Below, piece by piece: positions 7,401-38,000 of a stretch of 64,000 bases of DNA. This DNA comes from Allacma fusca (Eukaryota > Arthropoda > Collembola > Symphypleona > Sminthuridae): assembly GCA_947179485.1 (NCBI GenBank), contig OX359250.1, forward strand, positions 3,493,661-3,557,660, given 5' to 3'. Made by a program: the position numbers and the translations under genes. The first letter of the stretch is position 1, and every line of letters begins with the position of its first letter. Under the pieces are notes generated by a model, which saw only the letters and a program-made list of their open reading frames with translations, was not told the DNA's origin and did no database searches.

Positions 7401-8697
7401 TATGGATTTGGCAATGAGAAAGAAAGGGCATTCACTGTCGTCTGTGTTAAACAAGCCTCCTCCGGCACCCATGTGTCAGCCGAGGGCATCAGTCATTATG
7501 TTGGCTCACAGCGATGGGACTTTCGAACCGGCGAAATTGTTTTCGGAAAGTAAGCAGAGAAGTACAGAGCAGAGGCCAACTGCTGAACCCGTCAAAGAGC
7601 AGCCGCCAGCAGAAGATCTGCCTAGCCGCAAGACTTCGGGTTCGGAGATGACTAGTGGACACAGAGACAAGAATATTCCTTTGACGAGGGGCGTGGTGGC
7701 TATGAGTGGCGATGATACATTCGGCTCCTGCATCGCCACCTCCACACGCGCCCCAGTATTTGTTTCGGGATCTCCCAATCTCCCTAACATAGCCAGTAAG
7801 TAGTTTAGCTACTATATTGCATAATTATACTGATGTGAACATTTGGAAAGTAATATTTTTTTTGTAGTTTAAGGAAATGGAATGTAAGTTATATATTTCT
7901 TTCGCGTTTGTAGGTCAAAATAGTATTCGCCCTATTGCTATTGCCCCAAAAATGCTTCCGATCATGACACTTCTTCCCGTTGGGCAACAAAATCCGAATG
8001 GGACGATTTTGTACGTACCTTCGGTGTTCAAATCAAGAGTCGGAGGACAAGATCCTCAGCAGACTTTCATTATGCCTCAACTTCTCTTCCCTGCTGGAAC
8101 AGCTGTGGTTGGTAATAATTCTGTGGTCAACGTCAAAGGCCAGAATCAGGATCGTCGCCGTACCTATTGTTGTACACGGGAAGGTTGCAGCAAAACTTAC
8201 TATAAATCGTCACATCTGAAGGCTCATGAACGAACTCATACCGGTAAGCATGAGATGATAAATTTCGAATCTTTCCAATTAAAAAATTTAAAAAAAATGT
8301 GAACTCTTAATTGATTTAGTGGTTTTATTTTGTAGGTGAGAAACCTTTCGCATGTACCTGGGAAAATTGTGGTCGAAAATTCTCTCGTTCCGACGAACTC
8401 TCTCGTCATCGCCGTACGCACACTGGAGAAAAGCGCTTTCAATGTACTGCCTGCGGGCGCCGTTTCCTTCGTTCGGACCATTTAGCGAAGCACAACAAGC
8501 GTCACTTGAAGGAGCAGAAAAAACCCAACTTAAAGTAAGTGTAAGATGTAACTTGAATGCGTGTTCGCTATTTATAAATTGTATTTTGGATCATTACAAA
8601 GGAAAGTACTCATCTTGGATTTTGAAATTGTAGGGAAACTCAAATAGCACCTGCGTTCAGCTTCTACATATCTCAGGCAACGCCAAGAGCTCCGTAA
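1431..8697 (+). CDS. cbt: cabut/TIEG (KLF10/11-type) zinc-finger transcription factor
   Basis: Nuclear C2H2 regulator of the KLF10/11 (TIEG; Drosophila cabut) class, which binds GC/CACCC boxes and mostly represses. Coding exons by splice borders and phase: 1431-1490, 7201-7795, 7914-8243, 8336-8534, 8634-8697 (TAA at 8695), giving 415 codons. Exon 1 encodes [20 protein letters not shown] and ends at GTAAGT. Residues ~27-40 ([14 protein letters not shown]) resemble the amphipathic Sin3-interaction helix of TIEG proteins. An S/E-rich stretch ([14 protein letters not shown]) and [16 protein letters not shown] match repression segments of the family. The C-terminus has three contiguous fingers: ~303-327 (C-x4-C), 333-357 (C-x4-[14 protein letters not shown]) and 363-385 (C-x2-[10 protein letters not shown]), joined by TGEKP/TGEKR linkers; this is the KLF signature. 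The KLF class is secure and the TIEG subgroup very likely. Intron 1 is 5.7 kb, so an alternative promoter/first exon cannot be excluded. Confidence 0.93.
2127..2145. repeat. (TG)n microsatellite in cabut intron 1
   Basis: Short uninterrupted TG run inside the first intron. Confidence 0.9.
3750..3838. repeat. Dispersed repeat (GGGTGACC…CGATTCCCC family), copy 1, ending in a palindrome
   Basis: Shares the ordered motifs with 47900-48060 and 54800-54870. It ends in the perfect palindrome CTGACCTAGGTCAG (3825-3838), related to those at 27054 and 41290. Confidence 0.55.
3835..4134 (-). CDS. Putative small secreted protein nested in cabut intron 1
   Basis: A 99-codon open frame starting at a true ATG (4134-4132), antisense to the host gene. 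Residues 1-24 form a textbook signal peptide: basic n-region KFSK, hydrophobic [11 protein letters not shown] core, and a likely cleavage after NFYNG leaving an N-terminal Gln. The predicted mature part (~75 aa) has three cysteines (27, 78, 95), a [20 protein letters not shown] segment containing Gly-Arg, and ends CDPKY. The Gly-Arg could be an amidation/cleavage site, but only one such site is seen. No family is recognised. The ORF abuts a dispersed repeat (about 3750-3838), so it could be repeat-borne or chance. Spliced additional exons are possible. Confidence 0.35.
   Translation of the reverse strand: MKFSKSPVSLLFIYILALTNFYNGQICSEIKVRPQPAPYFDDMPRIIPNVGRGQIADWKTPKIPYKLERESIQVERNCGREYKNRATWFHIRDTCDPKY
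6060..6440. repeat. A+T-rich ATTAATTA-type degenerate repeat
   Basis: A dense run of AATTATTAATTA/TAATAATTATAATAA words and TTAATCTTTAATAATTATGTAATCC. It is similar in style to the larger block at 53860-54780, in an intron of the bab-like gene. Possibly a decayed element; boundaries are uncertain. Confidence 0.4.
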
Positions 8698-10340: not shown

Positions 10341-12207
10341 GTTTTCAAAATTTCCCATGGAATTATTTGAGTATAAAAATACTTTGACCGATGGATTCGC
10401 ACTGTCCAGGATTTTTAGTTTTTGAAATTTCAGACGGGAAAAAGAAACTTTATGCTTTTACTCCACCCTCCAAAAAAGATATTTTTGAATTTCTTCCAAC
10501 CCTTGACCCGCCGTCAATTATCAATGGCTTTCGGTAATTTTCAGAACCGCATACATTTAAGTAAATATTTGCGGCCCTTAAGTTTCCTTGTTCTGTGAAA
10601 TATTCTTAATTTTCATGCCATTTTTGTTTGTCAGCTTCGTAGCTACCAATTACATTTCATCACAAGGGTCTTTAACCAGCCAGATTTTGATAAAATTTCT
10701 ATTTAAAAAAATGTGCAGTGTTGTTCGTCAATTTTGGTGAGGTACGCTTAGAAAACAGGACCCTCAAATCTAATATTTCTGCAATATTTGAATCAACCAG
10801 TACAAAAGATAGAAAATGATGACGCTGATAAAAGCTTTCAAAAAAGACACCATGCTAAGTTCAACATTTTCATACCGAATAAAAAAATTTCAAGCATAAA
10901 ATGCAGTCTATATTGTTTTTCCTAAATTCTTACTTCCTTGCATAATTACTTGCAAACAATTTTAGAGATCAAGCTTTACTTGGATTTACGTTATACGTCC
11001 TTCGTGGGTCCCTTCAAATCTTCCATAGTTTCGTTCCTGTGGCTAAATATATCCCTAATTGTACCCGTATTTCCGAAACTTCTTAGCAATGAAAATAATG
11101 ATTTAGGTCTAAGCTAGATTTCTTTTAACTTTGTAGCAATACGCGTAAAAAATTGAGCAAGTTTTCCACTTTGAAATTTAAACAAAATTCCGAGCAAATC
11201 ATCTACCTTAAATATTGTCTTTACCTTGCTACAAAAACACTTGTACAATATTCATTTATTCCCCATTGTTAAGGAAATTCCTTTCCAGATTTTCAGAAAT
11301 TTGTTTGTTTCATTGTTAACTGGCGTGCCCCTTCGTTGACAATTGTTGTCATGAAAGGTAAAAATAGTGAGAACGCTTCGAGAAATTCAAGAGCAAAGGG
11401 AAAGAAGACATGGGAAAGGAGGAATTTCTAACGTTGGCATTTTTACTTGGACGCTCCGGGTGCACAGAAGCATTTGAAGAAATTTTGCCTAGTAGCGAAT
11501 TTATAGGGGAATCTTTAGTTGTTTATTTATTTCGCCACGTGTGCACAATACCGTGTCAGCAAGAATGATTTCAAAGAACGTAACCGTAAATTAAATCTTG
11601 GAGGAGGTACAAACTTGTGTTCAATCTATTTGCAACATCCAAGCGCAGTAAAAATTTAAAAAATCCTAAACGCAGGTAGCATCTTATCATAAGCAAAATA
11701 ATACTGAAATTGTGAATTTGGTGTGAGTGTCTGTATATCTAGAGGAGAAGTTCTGTTGATTAAATTTACATTTTATGGAAATTGGGGCCATATATGGTAT
11801 TCTAGTGCCGTTATGTTGCTAAACCAAACAAGGTTAACGAGAACTTGCACATATGTAAATGTATAGAAAATTGACAGGCTAGAATGTCTCTTAGGTCAGT
11901 CACATCTTTGGCAAGTGTCCTCGAGGAAAATTATCTTTACTATTATAAAGTCCTGCTTGAGGGTGTCCGACATGCTTTCACCTTTTCAATTGGAGAAAAA
12001 TATTTGGATTATGGAAAGGGCAGTTTCTTAGGTTGCAAATATGGACAGAGTTTTTGGGATATAGTCAACTTAAGTAAATTAGGAATACAGTAAGATCGAA
12101 ATGATATACAGCGGGGATCTTATGCGTTAGGTATACGGGGAATTTACATGTACGATAGGGATGCGGGCTTTATTTTTTAAGGATAAGAGAACTTTAAGCG
12201 TCAGGTG

Positions 12208-12824
12208 CAAAGGTGTCCAAAAGGTTCAGCCTACCTAAAATACTACATTTTTTTAGCAGCTTTGCCTTCCCTACATATTAACCTACATTATTTATCAAAA
12301 ATAAATAGCCTACCTATTTGCCTACATATATACTCCTGTAATGTTTCTGCCTATATTTTAGCCTATAAAGGCATATTTTTTAGCCTATAAAGACCTATTT
12401 TTTAGCCTATAAAGACCTATTTTTTAGCTTATAAAGACCTATTTTTAGCCTATAAAGGCTTATTTTTTCAACTAAAAATCATCTATGTACATATGTACGT
12501 GCAATCGTAACACATGAAAAAAATCAAACTACTAAAATGTCACGTATTTGAAGAATATTTTTGAGATTTATTTTAAGGTTAAATCAAATAATTGCTTGAC
12601 AAATTTGTCAATAGATTATTAAATATGCCTATTTTTACCTTTGCAAACTGCCTACCTTGTTCCTAAATAAAAAGTGAACTCTTGCAGCTCCTACATATAA
12701 TATAGGATTAATTTTAGCGGTAATTACTGCACCCTATTTTACTACCTATAATTACTTGGATTTTGCATCCTGCCTATTTTTATCCTATATATAGGCCTAT
12801 AAATAGGATAGGTGGACACCTTTG
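12208..12824. mobile_element. hAT-like MITE, 617 bp, with 8-bp target duplication
   Basis: The ends are perfect 12-bp inverted repeats, CAAAGGTGTCCA at 12208-12219 and its complement at 12813-12824. They are flanked exactly by the 8-bp direct repeat GTCAGGTG (12200-12207 and 12825-12832). An 8-bp duplication plus a CA(A/G)(A/G)GGTGTCC end is characteristic of hAT transposons. There is no transposase ORF, so it is non-autonomous. The interior is rich in CCTA/CCTAT words and holds five copies of a 22-bp unit at about 12361-12470. A sequence homologous to both flanks, but without the insert, lies at 36120-36310. Confidence 0.88.
12361..12470. repeat. 22-bp tandem repeat inside the hAT MITE
   Basis: Five tandem copies beginning GCCTATAAAG at 12361, 12383, 12405, 12427 and 12448 (period 22, last step 21), each followed by a T-run. 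Internal satellites of this kind are common in non-autonomous hAT elements. Confidence 0.9.
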
Positions 12825-13845
12825 GTCAGGTGTAAGGGAGTTGAGCATTTTCCGTGAGGAATTTTTAGGCTACGGTTAGTGGAAACTTTTTAAGAGTTAC
12901 TGGTACAGGTTCATCTTGAGATTATGGAGCCCAAATATTAAGGTTAATCGTATTTGTGAATTATTTTAAATACCAGTGAGGTCCACCCCTACGTCAACGA
13001 ACGGCCGTAACAACAGGCCAACAAAAATCACGCCCTTAATTTTCGCTTATCGGCTTATCTGGATACAAGGTTGAGAAAATTCACTAACTGAGGAATTGGG
13101 TAGCTGCTGCCCTTTAGCAGGTGCCCCATTCTGTGGTTTAGTAAATCGTTTTTTTAAGGCTGCGTAGGGGCCATCTAGTGATTGTACTTGTCCGTACTTC
13201 CATGGACATGAATGACACAATTAAAGAAAAATTACTGCACTGATTTCACCCAAACTTTGCACACGTATTCTTCAAATCAAAATATCGGATCAGCTCGATT
13301 TTAGTTGAAATGGGTGGAGTAATGAATAGAATAATAATTGTTTATTTCCAAAGATGCTGTTGAAAGGCAGCAAAGAAATATCCGGGGTGAAGTGATGCAC
13401 TAATAACTACTCTCATTGCCATCTTGCCATTGAAAAATTTACAGACAAGGATAATTTATCAATAAGTACAAAGAATGACACAGACGTAATCTACATGTTA
13501 GCGCAAACAAAATTATTCTGAAAATCTCCACTATCAAAAATATAAAAACCAAACCTAACAAAGGCCTTTTACAAATTCTAAAAAATGTTTAAATAGTTCT
13601 GAAAAATATTTTTAAAATTTTGACGTTGCTTCTTAAATTCGGGGAAACATTTCAAAATTTCCAATAGGTGCCATAAAAATGGAAAACAATTTACGTGTTA
13701 CTTCAAGTATCACTTAGATCAAAGGTCATAAACCATAGGGGTGGGTCCAAAATCGTTGTGAAGTGCCAATTTTTATATGCTATGTCAATGATGGGTAAAA
13801 CGCTTATATGTGCTGGTAATAATTCTGACTTACAAATTCACAGAA

Positions 13846-17100: not shown

Positions 17101-20083
17101 TTCCAGGAAATCCTATCATTCATAATAATAAATAATCTTACAGTTCGCGAGTAAGTATCAGGAAGTAAATGAAACACCGTTGGCAAAGTTTAAGTTCAAG
17201 ATCAAAAAAGAGAACAAAAATTAATTTTCAGAACGGGAAATGCATTATCGTGTACTTTAATTAATGGTATGCTTATTTTCAACTATAGACTTCTGTGAAG
17301 GTGTTCATGTCATTACGGAGAGACAAAACAAGACATTATGCTGTTCAGATAATCAGCATCGCATAGCCCCTGTTCGAACATTACTGGTCGGTAATGAAAT
17401 AATTAATTACGCAATAACTACAATTGAATTATTTAGCACTAATTCATGTTCAATAAAATAAGTTGAAGCGTTTTGTACTTCCTATCAATCTACTCGAAGC
17501 TCATACTATTTTTTGCAACATACACAAAAGATAAACTTGGTTTTTAGTCTGCCTGGTGGAACTTTAGTACTAAGTCTACTGACAGTGAGTCCAAAATGGA
17601 AATAAACCAGTTTACAAGTTTCGAAATTTCAGAGACCGCAATGATGGAAGACAAGTACTGGGAATTTCAACAATGTGTTATATTTATAAATATACTGTTA
17701 TTTCCCCGTTTACTTCATCCATGAATGCTCCTTATAGGTACATCTAAATTACAAAGGTATATTTTGTGAGTAACTATTAAAAACTTATTAATAATATATA
17801 TCGAGAATTAATGAGTGCACATGAATGCAACCATACCATAATTTGACTGTAAGAGGATATGTTCCGTGCACTGTGCAGGTGTTAAATGTGTTATGGTGTT
17901 GGTGTCGTATATTCACAATATTTAGTAAACGGAGTGAGTGGCACTTCTGGCAGAATAGTGTCAGTATTTTTTCGAGACCCATTAGATATCCCCAGAAGGA
18001 AAAGTAATGGATTGAAAATTCAAACATAGATCAAACTCGTATTCGATTCTGTTTGAACAGGCACAAATGAAACCCCACACGAATTACATTACTTCAATGC
18101 CAGTGTTTTGATTTTTAAATACGCCCAGACCGTTTCTGTGAAATGGCAACATTGGAAATTCCTCCTTTTTCTTACTTTCTTCGCACTTTCAATCTTGAAA
18201 CTGAATTTCCCTAACCGAGCTCCCTGTTTACCAACTATGGTCACAATTCTAAACCAAGGAACAACCCCGATAGCTCCTTGATAAGCCCAAAAACTTACTA
18301 CAATTTTTCGTAGTTCCGACTGTTGTTTCGCTGGAACTGCAGATTTTCCAATAAGCACTTCTACTATCTTCAAGAAAAATTCTTAATACTACGGCGCTGA
18401 TTAATTTTTTTCCATGAAAAAAGTTCAAAATCCTTATTACACTCAAAAAATTTAGAAAAGAATTTGCTTGAAACTAGGAGATCATATTCTTTGCATGAAT
18501 GTCCCTTACATAGGCTCGGGGGAGTCAAGACCATGCAACATGGTGAACAGCAGGAGCACGCAACCGTTCGTTCTTCGAGACTACTTATTTCCGTAACCAA
18601 AATTTTTTAGATTCGTAATCCATTAATCAAATTTACCCTTTGCACCAAGTTTCATATAAAACAGAATATAGATGGTAAACTGGACATGCCACCAAATCAT
18701 TCACAAATTCATAGCAAGACTTGCAACGAAAGTTTACTTGTTCATGATTCCTTCCCAGTTCCTGTAAGTATCGGGAATTGGATATCTTTGTATCGTGATT
18801 CTGGTTCTCACTTTTAACTCCTTAATCATATCTTCGATGTCGAATTTAAATGGATGCTGACCAAAATTTGCTTCTACAACTTCTCCCGGAGTTTGCAAAC
18901 CAACCGTGGGGTACAAGCTAGGCTGTAAACAGAATTTCTATTAACAGTTACGAAATACAACTGTACAGCGAATCTCGATAAAACGGACACTGGGAATTTT
19001 CCATACGCTACACAAATCATCCGTTGTATACACTATCCTTAAGCTTGTGTATACAGTGCTTGGTTTATTCTAAACAGTTCGTTAAATGCAAATATTCTTC
19101 CAGAATTGAACTCACAGGTAGGTTCCGTGAAAGCTATAAAAATTATCCGTTGTATACACTATCCTTAAGCTTGTGTATACAGGGCCTGGTTTATTCTAAA
19201 CAGTCCGTTATATGCAAATATTCTCCCAGAATTCAACTCACAGGTAGGTCAGTGAAAGCGATGCCCAGGTGATGACCATTTTTGGTGTAAAAACATGTGT
19301 TATCGAGAAGGTTGACCCCGCAGCCAATAATGTCATCTGTGGTAAAGGTTGGTCCGTAAGGTTGACCAGTGCCCGAGGAACAAAAACTATGACCATCATC
19401 TCCATGGTAGCCATATGAATGTTTATCCCAACCTGGAAGCCTATTCATATTCACTCCAGACGCAGACAGGCCGATGCCCATGTACCTGTCCATTCAAATA
19501 CAATATATTTCATAAACAACTCGAACATAACCCAGCATCACACCATTCCAGAAACGACTAGTTTCATACCCATCCCGTCCTTTTGAGATGATCTTAACTT
19601 CGAAGTAATAGAGTCCACACGCAGCAGGGATGGAGTGCGTCGCACGGACACTTGCTGCATCCTTGTGGCCTTTCCCGTGACCTAAGATTGACAAAACTCA
19701 TTCGTAAACAAAACAAATAGATGTGACTTCCCCATCCACCAACTTACCCACCTCAATTAGACCTCGAAGTATTGGCAGTATTGCCAACCCCATAAGTAAC
19801 TCCATGTCATCTCAGACACAAAGAGACCAAAGTCCGAAGGGAAGACACACATATATACATATATATATATGAACTAGAGTTGAGTAGAGTATTTATAAAT
19901 AAGCAAGTCGTTGATACCCTTACCTTTGTAATGCACTTTCAGATTGTTTTGCGATAGTCCAATAAAATTGAATTTATCTTTGGGGCTCCATGATCGGGGT
20001 AGCGGAGTTTCGGACTCATTGACCAAAGGGTAAAGCTCTTTAATTTTGTCTATACTGTGATCCGTACCTTTGGGTACACTCAT
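14181..20083 (-). CDS. RANBP9: RanBP9/RanBPM, CTLH (GID) complex scaffold
   Basis: Scaffold subunit of the CTLH/GID ubiquitin-ligase complex. Coding exons (- strand): 20083-19924, 19681-19570, 19485-19242, 18922-18738, 15508-15396, 15252-14926, 14834-14649, 14548-14181. All phases join, giving 564 aa. Residues ~15-172 are the SPRY domain ([60 protein letters not shown]), followed by [19 protein letters not shown]. LisH is at ~234-254 ([20 protein letters not shown]) and CTLH from ~272 ([20 protein letters not shown]). Then come a Ser/Asn-rich linker and the CRA domain at ~443-555 ([33 protein letters not shown]). The start is the ATG at 20083; another in-frame ATG lies at 20098 (MAVRKM), but a plausible acceptor (CTTCATGGCAG) falls between them. 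The long Pro/Gln N-terminus of vertebrate RanBP9 is absent, more like RanBP10. Confidence 0.96.
15509..18737 (-). other. RanBP9 intron between SPRY-tail and LisH exons
   Basis: A 3.2 kb intron, with donor AA|GTAAAC at 18737 and acceptor GCGCAG at 15509-15510. I see no conserved coding exon in it; scattered open frames have no domain signature. Confidence 0.7.
19021..19260. repeat. Tandem duplication (126-bp period) spanning a RanBP9 exon end and 5' splice site
   Basis: Copy 1 starts at 19021 and copy 2 at 19147, each beginning CCGTTGTATACACTATCC and running to GTGAAAGC (19135 / 19259), with only a few substitutions and small indels. Copy 2 contains the last ~18 bases of SPRY exon 3 and its donor (GT at 19241-19240, minus strand). 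Copy 1 carries the matching pseudo-donor at 19115-19114. Each copy also contains an inverted repeat TGTATACAC...GTGTATACA that can form a hairpin. Confidence 0.93.
19850..19872. repeat. (AT)n-rich microsatellite in RanBP9 intron 1
   Basis: A run of alternating A/T with one C interruption (ATATATACATATATATATATG), between the first two coding exons. Confidence 0.75.
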
Positions 20084-35000: not shown

Positions 35001-38000
35001 CCTACAGCAACCAAAATGATTGTGCCACCTTCTGCAATATATTCCATGTATCTTGTGATCACCATACCTGAATTTAACCCGGCACCTTAACAAGTATCTT
35101 CTTCAAGAAGCATCAGTGATCAGATGTTCTGCTAGAATTTGAGACAATTGGCTGGAAGTTAAACGTATTTACTGAAATTCAGTTTTTCCTATAAATCGTT
35201 CACTAGAACATTAATAATTACTGCCCATATAAAAATACAAAAAGGAGATAGCGGTTGGCAATCGGAAAAAACTGTCGCCTCATAGGGCTAATATAAAGCA
35301 ATTTACCTTTTTACACGGCACTCCTTGACGTATGCTATTGTAAACCACAGATTGCAGATACGCTTGGATGCATATCACGAATAAATTACGAGTTTAGTAG
35401 ATTATAGAGAAGTGTATAGGCGTAAAGGCATCATGCCATTGTTGTTAGGATTAACTAAAGCTGTCGGATCCCCGGAAAGCAAAATTTTAGATTCCCTAAT
35501 TTTAATTCAAAATATTTTCGGGTATGTAAAAAACATTATCTCAAAAGTTTTTTTGCATCACATCATGCTTTCATGTGGATTCATTTGAGTCTGATATTGA
35601 CTTAACTGAAAGGTTGCGGTATCAGGTCCTAAATACATACGTGAGTGAGAATTATTTAAAGAGTTGCAGTAATTTTGTTTCTTGATTCAGTCTTCATGCT
35701 TGTCAGGATTGAATGTTATCCAATTCTTCCCAGATAAGTCCTTGAACCTTTAACATTTTTATTTTTAGGATTTGGAAGAAGTTCTCGGCCCGGATTTAGT
35801 TCTGATGCACTTGAAGCAGAACGGGAATTAGTGGCTTCAATTGAAGAATGGAGGAAAGAAATGAAACTGGACAATTTCGTTCTTCTAGGACACAGTATGG
35901 GGGGATTTTTAGCGACGTCTTATGCTATTCGATATCCAGAAAGGTATGGAGCTACTACAACCATCGCCTTTAGTCTTTATACCGGTCCCTTAGGTCTTAG
36001 GGATGTATACCTACAACCCATCACCCACATCGTAATCGTTATCTTTTCACATTTATGAAATGTGTGTGTCACACTATTTTTTCCTGTCTTTTCAGGACTG
36101 TCCAGGACTTTTCATGTTAGGGGTAGGGAAACTTGATGTATACCAGAGATAAGGGCGAATTTATGAGTTAAGGATAAGAGGAACTTTGTGCGTTAGGTGT
36201 AGGGATGACTGTATGTGTACCTTAAGGGTAGGGAAAGTTTTATACGTTAGGAATTTTTAGGTTACGGATTTTTAAACTATGGATAGTGGACGCTTTTTGG
36301 TTTACGTAAAGATTTGTTCAATATATTTCTGCCCCGAGAAAGTGGACCACGTACTTTCTACTAAATCGTTGAGGACCTTTCTCGGATCTCCTTGGAATTA
36401 ACGATATTGGAGGATATTGAATTATGTATTTTTTCTTATGTTTCAGGGTTTCTCATCTAATTTTGGCTGATCCATGGGGATTTCCTGAAAAACCAGCCGA
36501 TCTGAGCCAGCGGTACCCTATACCATTATGGGTCAAAGCAATCGCTTATGTTCTACAACCTTTAAATCCTCTTTGGGGCATCCGAGTTGCAGGACCTATG
36601 GGTATGCGTAGTTTTTTTTTCCACCTATATAAGTTTATGGTAAGTTTATTGCAAGTTGTGTGTATTTGTTTATGACTTACAAAATTAAAATCATATCAAA
36701 TTGAGCCAGCCTTTCTTCATTCGTGTGACGTGTGACCACGTGCACCACGTCAATCCAAAAGCTTTAAATGTAATTTATTATTACTAGCTTAGCGTTTTGT
36801 GAAGTCTCGGAGCTTTCTTGGGCTTGTCATTGACAAACAAACCACGTGCAGTCATGTGAGCATTCCATTCCTGGTGTCGTATATAAATTGAGGGGCCATG
36901 TAGTGTTGACAATTTTAAGCTCCTTTACTGGCTGTAGCCGGGTCTAGGGAAATTCGCACCTTTACCACCAAGTATATTCTATAACAGTGATTTTCTAAAG
37001 CTTGGTTTACTAGGTAAACTCATTAAAATTCTGAAACAATCTGGGCCGGGAGACTTGTAGCTTCGGAGGTATGAGAGGTCAAAGTTCGTGTAGGTAATGT
37101 AAATGTATCGCACACAGATGTTTATCCCACACATGTCGCTGCCGTATAGCCATCTTTTGATTTTATTTTTGTTGGCAAAGAATCGTAATAAAGTTTGGAT
37201 GACTCCGGCAAGATATATTTTTTTGTGTGGCACGAATTGGACACTATCTAATAGACCTTATGTTGTCTTATATTAGTGTAGAGATGTTCAAATGAAATGT
37301 CCTTAAAAAAGGTCAACTTAAAAAATGCCTTGCTACATTACATGTCACTTTTGGCCTCTAATATCTTCAAAATAATAAATCTCCCAGTCAAAATCCTTTC
37401 ATATTCTTAACCAGCACACCGAATTTGCCTCGTACGTAAGCTTTTATAAAAATCTAAAATTAGCATGTAAAATAAACCTGTTCCCAGTTATCCCATTTTA
37501 TATATTGTAACGCACCAGACTGGCCATTTTGTCAGGTAGGTGTGTTTACACATGGACATTTAAAATGTTCCAGAATTGTCTATCGCATCTCAGGATCTTT
37601 CTTGATACCGTATATTATAATACCCAGATCCAATGTACAGATCCAGTTACGTCAGGATTATCTGGAAATGTATTTTGTTTAATCAACTTACGGAAAAGTA
37701 TGGTTAAAGTCTGGTTCCGTGCAATGACCGGGTATCTTGTTATCCGGTTGGTTGAAAACTTTAATATAACCCTGGATTGGGACTTACAATGGGATTTATT
37801 CAAGTCTTCGTACAAATTTAATAGGGCAAATTTACAATGTCTCTCAGTACACTCTCAATTTACAAATTTTCTCTCGGGGCGTCATTATAGAAAATCTGGA
37901 GGCAGTTACTCATACCTGATTTTGGAGTTTATTTGAAGCTCAAGGGTACTGCTACCGATAAAATATTATCACACAAAGTTTGTCATGCTGGAGTCTCATA

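What the first reader, a model, noticed from the sequence alone, without database searches (positions are those of the whole stretch)
12200..12832. Complete hAT-like MITE with an internal 22-bp satellite and a related empty site in the same window
Perfect 12-bp inverted ends, a perfect 8-bp target duplication and a five-copy internal tandem repeat make this an unusually clean, probably young element. The CCTA-dense interior is distinctive. The sequence at 36120-36310 shares both flanks but not the insert, which shows that the element jumped into an older interspersed repeat.
Basis: partly seen in the sequence, partly recalled or inferred. Interest (0 to 1): 0.72.

Follow-up and report, generated by a model that had tools for sequence, protein, structure and literature searches.

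The report
Springtail jumping-DNA family with partner
A short piece of parasitic DNA sits in hundreds of places in a springtail genome; a longer relative that probably moves it lies in the same genome, and both carry the same repeated four-letter signal near their ends.

Summary
Window 12208-12824 is a complete 617-bp element with perfect 12-bp inverted ends and a perfect 8-bp target duplication. The genome holds 324 left ends. Of the 40 scored copies, 36 have perfect 8-bp duplications; of 40 further places, 32 are complete and 26 have perfect duplications. The 59 distinct targets fit the hAT pattern nTnnnnAn.

I found the likely source type: two 3.9-kb elements (L098, L099) with matching ends, 8-bp duplications and a multi-exon gene with a hAT dimerisation domain. 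The MITE is such an element minus about 3.3 kb.

CCTA motifs cluster at both ends of the large element (20 of 25), and several keep their position in a second, diverged MITE. They are probably transposase-binding subterminal repeats; binding was not tested. The 22-bp array is a variable minisatellite of about 2 to 10 units.

A relative of the empty site at 36116-36265 is real. A known kind, unusually well resolved.

The parts
12200..12207 (.). left target site duplication GTCAGGTG
12825..12832 (.). right target site duplication GTCAGGTG
12208..12824 (+). complete 617-bp hAT MITE
12208..12219 (+). left terminal inverted repeat CAAAGGTGTCCA
12813..12824 (-). right terminal inverted repeat
12230..12349 (+). 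left cluster of CCTA motifs (7 outside the array), putative subterminal repeats
12350..12468 (+). 22-bp tandem array, 5.5 copies, CCTA-bearing; varies in unit number between copies
12621..12623 (.). overlap of the two alignments to the large element: approximate place where about 3.3 kb is missing
12628..12799 (+). right cluster of CCTA motifs (9), same strand as the left cluster
12781..12810 (.). palindrome TATCCTATATATAGG/CCTATAAATAGGATA just inside the right inverted repeat
36116..36265 (+). diverged relative of the target sequence without the insert

Best explanation
It is a miniature inverted-repeat element of the hAT superfamily, moved in trans by a hAT transposase. Shown: it has the structure of an internally deleted form of a 3.9-kb element that carries a hAT-type gene and still exists in two near-identical copies with both ends; its own copies sit in different 8-bp targets with hAT preference. 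Inferred: the transposase binds the many CCTA motifs that crowd both ends as subterminal repeats, cuts at the 12-bp inverted ends and inserts at nTnnnnAn targets. The deletion brought the two CCTA clusters onto one 0.6-kb piece. The CCTA-bearing 22-bp unit in the left part gains and loses copies as a minisatellite, which changes the number of putative binding sites on that side.
For: Copies: 324 left ends (35-mer, up to 3 mismatches) against 0 for the reversed control; 40 scored copies on all six chromosome-size contigs. Perfect 8-bp duplications in 36 of 40 and in 26 of 32 complete copies from 40 further places. Targets: 59 distinct, T at position 2 in 40 (p 2e-8), A at position 7 in 30 (p 0.003). 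Source type: L098 56-3920 with CTCCTGAT and L099 124-4011 with CATAAAAC on both sides, 7 substitutions and one 23-bp gap apart; the MITE aligns to both ends. The last exon has the hAT dimerisation domain PF05699, E 3.3e-12, and matches Hermes transposase chains at E 0.007. CCTA: 20 of 25 in the outer 410 of 3888 bp of L099 (p 9e-16). In the second MITE type L141 CCTA sites are unchanged in 42 of 48, other sites in 111 of 161 (p 0.007). Recent activity: L034 and L035 are identical with different duplications.
Against: No transposition was observed; mobilisation by this very transposase is inferred. Neither large copy is certainly intact: L098 has a 23-bp gap in a coding exon, and L099 lacks one intron acceptor that L098 has, although another acceptor upstream keeps the frame open. 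No BED zinc finger was detected; the middle and N-terminal parts gave no relevant solved structure. The MITE differs from L099 by about 4.5% (right) to 8% (left) ungapped, so its direct parent was a relative. Within the MITE family the CCTA constraint is weak: with 66 copies, shared substitutions 16 against 55 expected (p 0.006), singletons 33 against 36 (p 0.28), CCTA 11th of 33 tetramers; in the 36-copy test singletons gave p 0.08 and a circular-shift control 1.3% (all) and 20% (singletons). CCTA inside the array varies more than the rest of the array. A at position 7 is weaker than T at position 2, and T at position 4 (27 of 59) is also frequent.
Confidence: 0.92

Rival explanations
1. The MITE is moved by a different hAT transposase of this genome that recognises similar ends; L098/L099 are only relatives.
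For: Many hAT genes: 150 scored hits from 860 candidates, of which I examined 50 for the ends. L098 and L099 each have a defect or possible defect, and the MITE differs from L099 by about 4.5-8%. A second MITE type has the same ends.
Against: Among the 50 hAT loci examined, L095 (part of L098) is the only one where the MITE's end lies downstream of the domain in the right orientation; ends, subterminal parts and CCTA positions all match L099.
Confidence: 0.2
2. The 22-bp array and its unit changes are neutral slippage in a repeat-prone stretch and have no bearing on transposition.
For: Unit number changes often, at least once after insertion (L138/L139); CCTA inside the array is not conserved more than the rest of the array; copies with about 2 to 10 units all exist, so no unit number is required.
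Against: The unit is built of the motif that clusters at the ends of the large element and keeps register in L141.
Confidence: 0.6
3. A non-hAT superfamily with 8-bp duplications (for example P or Merlin) moved the element.
For: 8-bp duplications alone do not decide it (recalled).
Against: hAT dimerisation domain between matching ends and duplications; nTnnnnAn targets.
Confidence: 0.02
4. The copies arose mainly by duplication of larger segments, not by transposition.
For: L014, L016, L018 and L019 share flanks; L138-L140 share a target.
Against: 59 distinct perfect duplications among 72 copies.
Confidence: 0.02

Closest known systems
Hermes, Ac group of hAT (PMC10368747, passages read)
   Same: 8-bp targets of type nTnnnnAn; many 4-bp subterminal repeats (17 and 14 per end in Hermes), arranged differently at the two ends; the C-terminal part of the L099 protein matches Hermes chains.
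   Different: Motif here is CCTA and lies on the same strand at both ends; 12-bp inverted ends; multi-exon gene; no BED finger detected.
Herves of Anopheles gambiae (PMC3143072, passages read)
   Same: hAT element with tandem repeats in its left end starting 146 bp from the tip (here the array starts at element position 143) and a short transposase-binding motif in both subterminal regions.
   Different: Herves has three imperfect 100-bp repeats; here a 22-bp unit in about 2 to 10 copies, carried by a MITE with 324 left ends.
BuT2 and its MITEs in Drosophila (PMC3942097, passages read)
   Same: 12-bp ends, 8-bp duplications, multi-exon transposase gene, short derivatives that keep both ends.
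   Different: 24 short copies in D. willistoni against 324 left ends here; the passages read mention no internal minisatellite.
mar, a hAT MITE family of Drosophila (PMC3517528, search listing only)
   Same: hAT-derived MITE.
   Different: Not compared in sequence.
MITE-borne satellites such as miDNA4 of Xenopus (PMC9659126, passages read)
   Same: A tandem repeat rides inside a MITE.
   Different: miDNA4 is listed there under Tc1-mariner; here hAT, with a unit made of putative subterminal repeats. Long free arrays of the 22-bp unit were not looked for.

Membership tests
hAT superfamily | 8-bp target site duplication | tested here: met
   36 of 40 copies; 26 of 32 complete copies from 40 places; both large copies
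hAT superfamily | target preference nTnnnnAn (Ac group) | tested here: met
   59 distinct targets: T2 40 (p 2e-8), A7 30 (p 0.003). For the first 33, an nnnTAnnn preference was not significant: T4 14 (p 0.14), A5 8 (p 0.89); pooled T4 27, A5 20 of 59, not tested
hAT superfamily | short terminal inverted repeats | tested here: met
   12 bp, perfect in the window; at most 1 of 36 copies differs at any end position
hAT superfamily | transposase with C-terminal hAT dimerisation domain between matching ends | tested here: met
   L099 last exon PF05699 E 3.3e-12; ends and duplications
hAT superfamily | catalytic residues D, D, E | tested here: inconclusive
   Segments FDLWS, MADNA and SSMERVFS are present in the predicted L099 exons; that these hold the catalytic residues is recalled, no structure was aligned
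hAT superfamily | N-terminal BED zinc finger | tested here: not met
   No zf-BED match for the spliced N-terminal 414 aa. Recalled: not every hAT transposase shows one by sequence, so I do not treat it as decisive
MITE | short, non-coding, many copies, both ends shared with a transposase-bearing element | tested here: met
   617 bp; none of the 7 ORFs of 120 aa or more listed for the window lies in it; 324 left ends; ends shared with L098/L099
autonomous partner | intact gene that moves the MITE | tested here: inconclusive
   L099 exons can be joined in frame by GT-AG introns, one of them through an alternative acceptor; L098 has a 23-bp gap. Activity is not testable with these tools

The most novel reading that the evidence does not exclude
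The 22-bp array is a tunable recruiting platform: by adding CCTA-bearing units near one end the MITE changes how strongly it captures transposase, so that unit number sets jumping success and lets the miniature element outcompete its own full-length source.
Probability: 0.15. Interest if true: 0.65.

Novelty: new member of a known kind. Interest (0 to 1): 0.38.

Why it matters
hAT MITEs are common. Here a young family, its probable source type, a second diverged MITE with the same ends, a relative of the empty site and a variable minisatellite made of putative binding motifs lie in one chromosome-scale genome. That would let one test directly whether the number of subterminal repeats sets the success of a MITE. 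Paper searches on springtail hAT MITEs and on Allacma fusca transposable elements listed 5, 11 (10 shown) and 3 papers; none of the titles and abstract starts shown describes this family. I did not read those papers.

Tried and rejected
Array as a fixed trait: the arrays of the first 40 copies all measured 115-123 bp. This was an ascertainment effect of a 5.5-unit query; 40 further places showed a 22-bp ladder.

CCTA as a telomere repeat: CCTAA occurs twice and TTAGG never in the element; rejected.

L099's left end as a chimaera: the BLAST identity of 78% includes 62 gap positions; mismatches alone are 29; rejected.

End-like sequences at L054 and L073-L076 lie upstream of the dimerisation domain; judged chance. 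L076 also holds a shortened MITE further downstream. The end at L088 belongs to a second MITE type, not to a third large copy.

Strong selection on CCTA inside the family: only partly borne out.

Full report
WHERE IT IS. The window is G000:C9:3493661-3557660 of a genome of 392,743,791 bases in 91 contigs. Six large contigs have 81.89, 75.61, 66.08, 58.81, 55.59 and 48.06 Mb. These lengths match chromosomes 1-4, X1 and X2 of the springtail Allacma fusca, assembly GCA_947179485.1; C9 matches X2 (48.07 Mb). I saw this in passages of PMC10427803. The paper counts 95 scaffolds, here 91. The species is inferred from lengths.

THE OBSERVATION. 12208-12824 has perfect 12-bp inverted ends and GTCAGGTG on both sides. 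No other such arrangement exists in the window, and none arose in 40 simulated windows. The 22-bp array is at 12350-12468, 5.5 copies. CCTA occurs 24 times, against a mean of 5.5 and a maximum of 15 in 2000 simulations; 16 of the 24 lie outside the array, 7 to its left and 9 to its right. TAGG occurs 4 times. The motif thus lies on one strand at both ends.

THE FAMILY. The genome search gave 421 candidates, of which the tool scored 40; all 40 match at E 8e-277 or less, and 39 of 40 span positions 1-617. They lie on all six large contigs. The left-end 35-mer with up to 3 mismatches occurs 159 times forward and 165 times reverse, against 0 for the reversed control. Of the 40 copies, the window's included, 36 have perfect 8-bp duplications; the exceptions are L010 (a shifted 7-bp repeat), L031, L033 and the left-truncated L045. 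L014, L016, L018 and L019 share flanks and one duplication, so they are one insertion multiplied by duplication. The window copy differs by two positions from L009 and from L010, and L034 and L035 are identical at different targets.

FURTHER COPIES. The first 40 were picked by similarity to the query. I therefore took 40 further places from the 100 listed, leaving out those among the first 40. They are not a random sample: all have an exact left-end 35-mer and all lie on C1, C5 or C8. Of these 40, 32 have the right end within reach (about 740 bp), 26 have perfect duplications and 4 have one mismatch, three of the four (L138-L140) sharing one target sequence; L109 and L119 have 7 and 3 mismatches. 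Eight have no right end in reach. Four of these were looked at: L110 and L111 carry inserts of roughly 320 bp, L106 keeps only positions 1-72, L120 leaves the family after position 503. L122, L129, L132 and L136 were not examined further.

TARGETS. Pooling both sets gives 72 copies and 59 distinct perfect duplications: T at position 2 in 40 (p 2e-8), A at position 7 in 30 (p 0.003), G or C frequent at positions 1 and 8, T at position 4 in 27. This fits nTnnnnAn, given for Hermes in PMC10368747 (passages).

THE ARRAY IS A MINISATELLITE. In the 40 further places the array could be measured in 36: 56-57 bp five times, 76-79 nine times, 97-101 fourteen times, 118-122 four times, 143-144 twice, 160 once and 225 once. 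The steps are 22 bp, so units run from about 2 to 10. On a tree of 71 MITE copies and L099, built without the array, unit number changes at least 26 times among the 71; 52 of 66 inner branches are drawn open, so this figure is soft. Firmer cases are L138 and L139, identical outside the array and with the same target sequence but 97 against 76 bp, and L124/L131 (95% support) with 100 against 78 bp. The first pair suggests change after insertion.

THE LARGE ELEMENT. A genome search with the hAT dimerisation domain scored 150 hits of 860 candidates, all above the curated cut-off. I examined 50 of these loci for the ends: 30 with flanks on both sides and 20 with about 1.2 kb of 3' flank. In one, L095, the MITE's left 416 bp lie just downstream of the domain with the inverted end outermost. 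Longer stretches showed two elements with both ends: L098 56-3920 with CTCCTGAT on both sides and L099 124-4011 with CATAAAAC on both sides. They differ by 7 substitutions and one 23-bp gap. MITE 1-416 aligns to L099 element 1-354 (29 mismatches, 62 gap positions), and MITE 414-617 to its last 201 bp at 94%. The MITE thus has the structure of a relative of this element that lost about 3.3 kb. In L099 the array is 69 bp and irregular. How many more large copies exist is unknown, because that search did not complete.

THE TRANSPOSASE. The gene runs on the strand opposite to the MITE orientation used here. Of 7 exon pieces given to Pfam, the last has PF05699 at E 3.3e-12; one other has only a weak match below its cut-off (FliG_C) and five have none. 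The last exon matches four Hermes-type sequences in the PDB at E 0.007 and one unrelated at E 0.99; a middle exon matches none. Exons of L099 can be joined in frame by GT-AG introns. The predicted protein is 41% identical with many gaps to that of a relative in L100; both models are rough. L098 has the 23-bp gap in a coding exon. L099 lacks one acceptor that L098 has, though another upstream keeps the frame open. I do not claim that either copy is active. The spliced N-terminal 414 aa gave no zinc-finger match, only a weak one to Rua1_C below cut-off, and no relevant structure.

WHAT THE CCTA MOTIFS ARE. In L099, 20 of 25 CCTA lie in the outer 210 and 200 of 3888 bp (p 9e-16); without the array it is 15 of 20 (p 2e-12). 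L141 is a 639-bp MITE with duplication GTCTATAC on both sides that BLAST aligns to this family only at its ends (73-83%). It has 19 CCTA and 4 TAGG. Its CCTA motifs share with the MITE positions 23, 63 and 75 from the left and 92, 52, 41 and 29 from the right; others do not coincide. In the compared ends, CCTA sites are unchanged in 42 of 48 and other sites in 111 of 161 (Fisher p 0.007; left end alone 0.10, right end alone 0.02). Neighbouring sites are not independent, so these p values are optimistic.

Within the MITE family the signal is weaker. With 66 copies, shared substitutions avoid CCTA (16 against 55 expected, p 0.006), but singletons do not (33 against 36, p 0.28), and CCTA ranks 11th of 33 tetramers in constancy. 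With 36 copies, all mismatches gave p 0.001, singletons 0.08, and circular shifts 1.3% and 20%. Inside the array CCTA is not conserved. I read the difference between shared and single changes as sites that matter when an element jumps and not afterwards; this is inference. Hermes has 17 and 14 copies of a 4-bp BED-bound motif in its ends (PMC10368747). Herves has a short motif bound in both subterminal regions and tandem repeats in its left end (PMC3143072). These are analogies.

THE EMPTY SITE. The flanks joined without the insert align to 36116-36265 with score 61; 500 simulated targets reached at most 38 and no other tile of the window more than 29. The 45-bp core, 82% identical, runs across the junction. 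So the element landed in a sequence that has a paralogue 24 kb away.

VERDICT. The finding is right, and ordinary in kind: a young hAT MITE family, newly described as far as three paper searches show (listings only, subscription journals and repeat databases not covered). What raises it is the near-complete set of parts in one genome and the variable array of putative binding motifs.

Noticed in passing
L141:23-661 (G000:C9:25318562-25319200): A second MITE type, 639 bp, with CAAAGGTGTCC ends and duplication GTCTATAC, alignable to this family only at its ends, with several CCTA motifs at the same distances from the ends.
   Followed up: partly
L110 and L111, inside MITE copies: Both MITE copies carry an unrelated insert of roughly 320 bp that begins TGTCATG after ATAT; perhaps one kind of small inserted element (by eye).
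   Followed up: no
L014, L016, L018, L019: Four MITE copies on two contigs share 300 bp of both flanks at 98.7-100% identity: the MITE has been carried along by another recently multiplied sequence.
   Followed up: no
genome G000: Rich in hAT genes: 150 scored dimerisation-domain hits, all above cut-off; two hits on C1 of equal score lie in open frames of 632 aa each.
   Followed up: no
window 19007-19259: Tandem duplication of a 126-bp unit, 2.0 copies, 91% matches.
   Followed up: no
window 7877-8302: An ORF that by eye ends in a Krueppel-like zinc finger; no family search was run.
   Followed up: no
window 36445-36600: Sequence just downstream of the empty-site relative reads by eye like an exon of an alpha/beta-hydrolase, so that relative may lie in an intron; not tested.
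   Followed up: no
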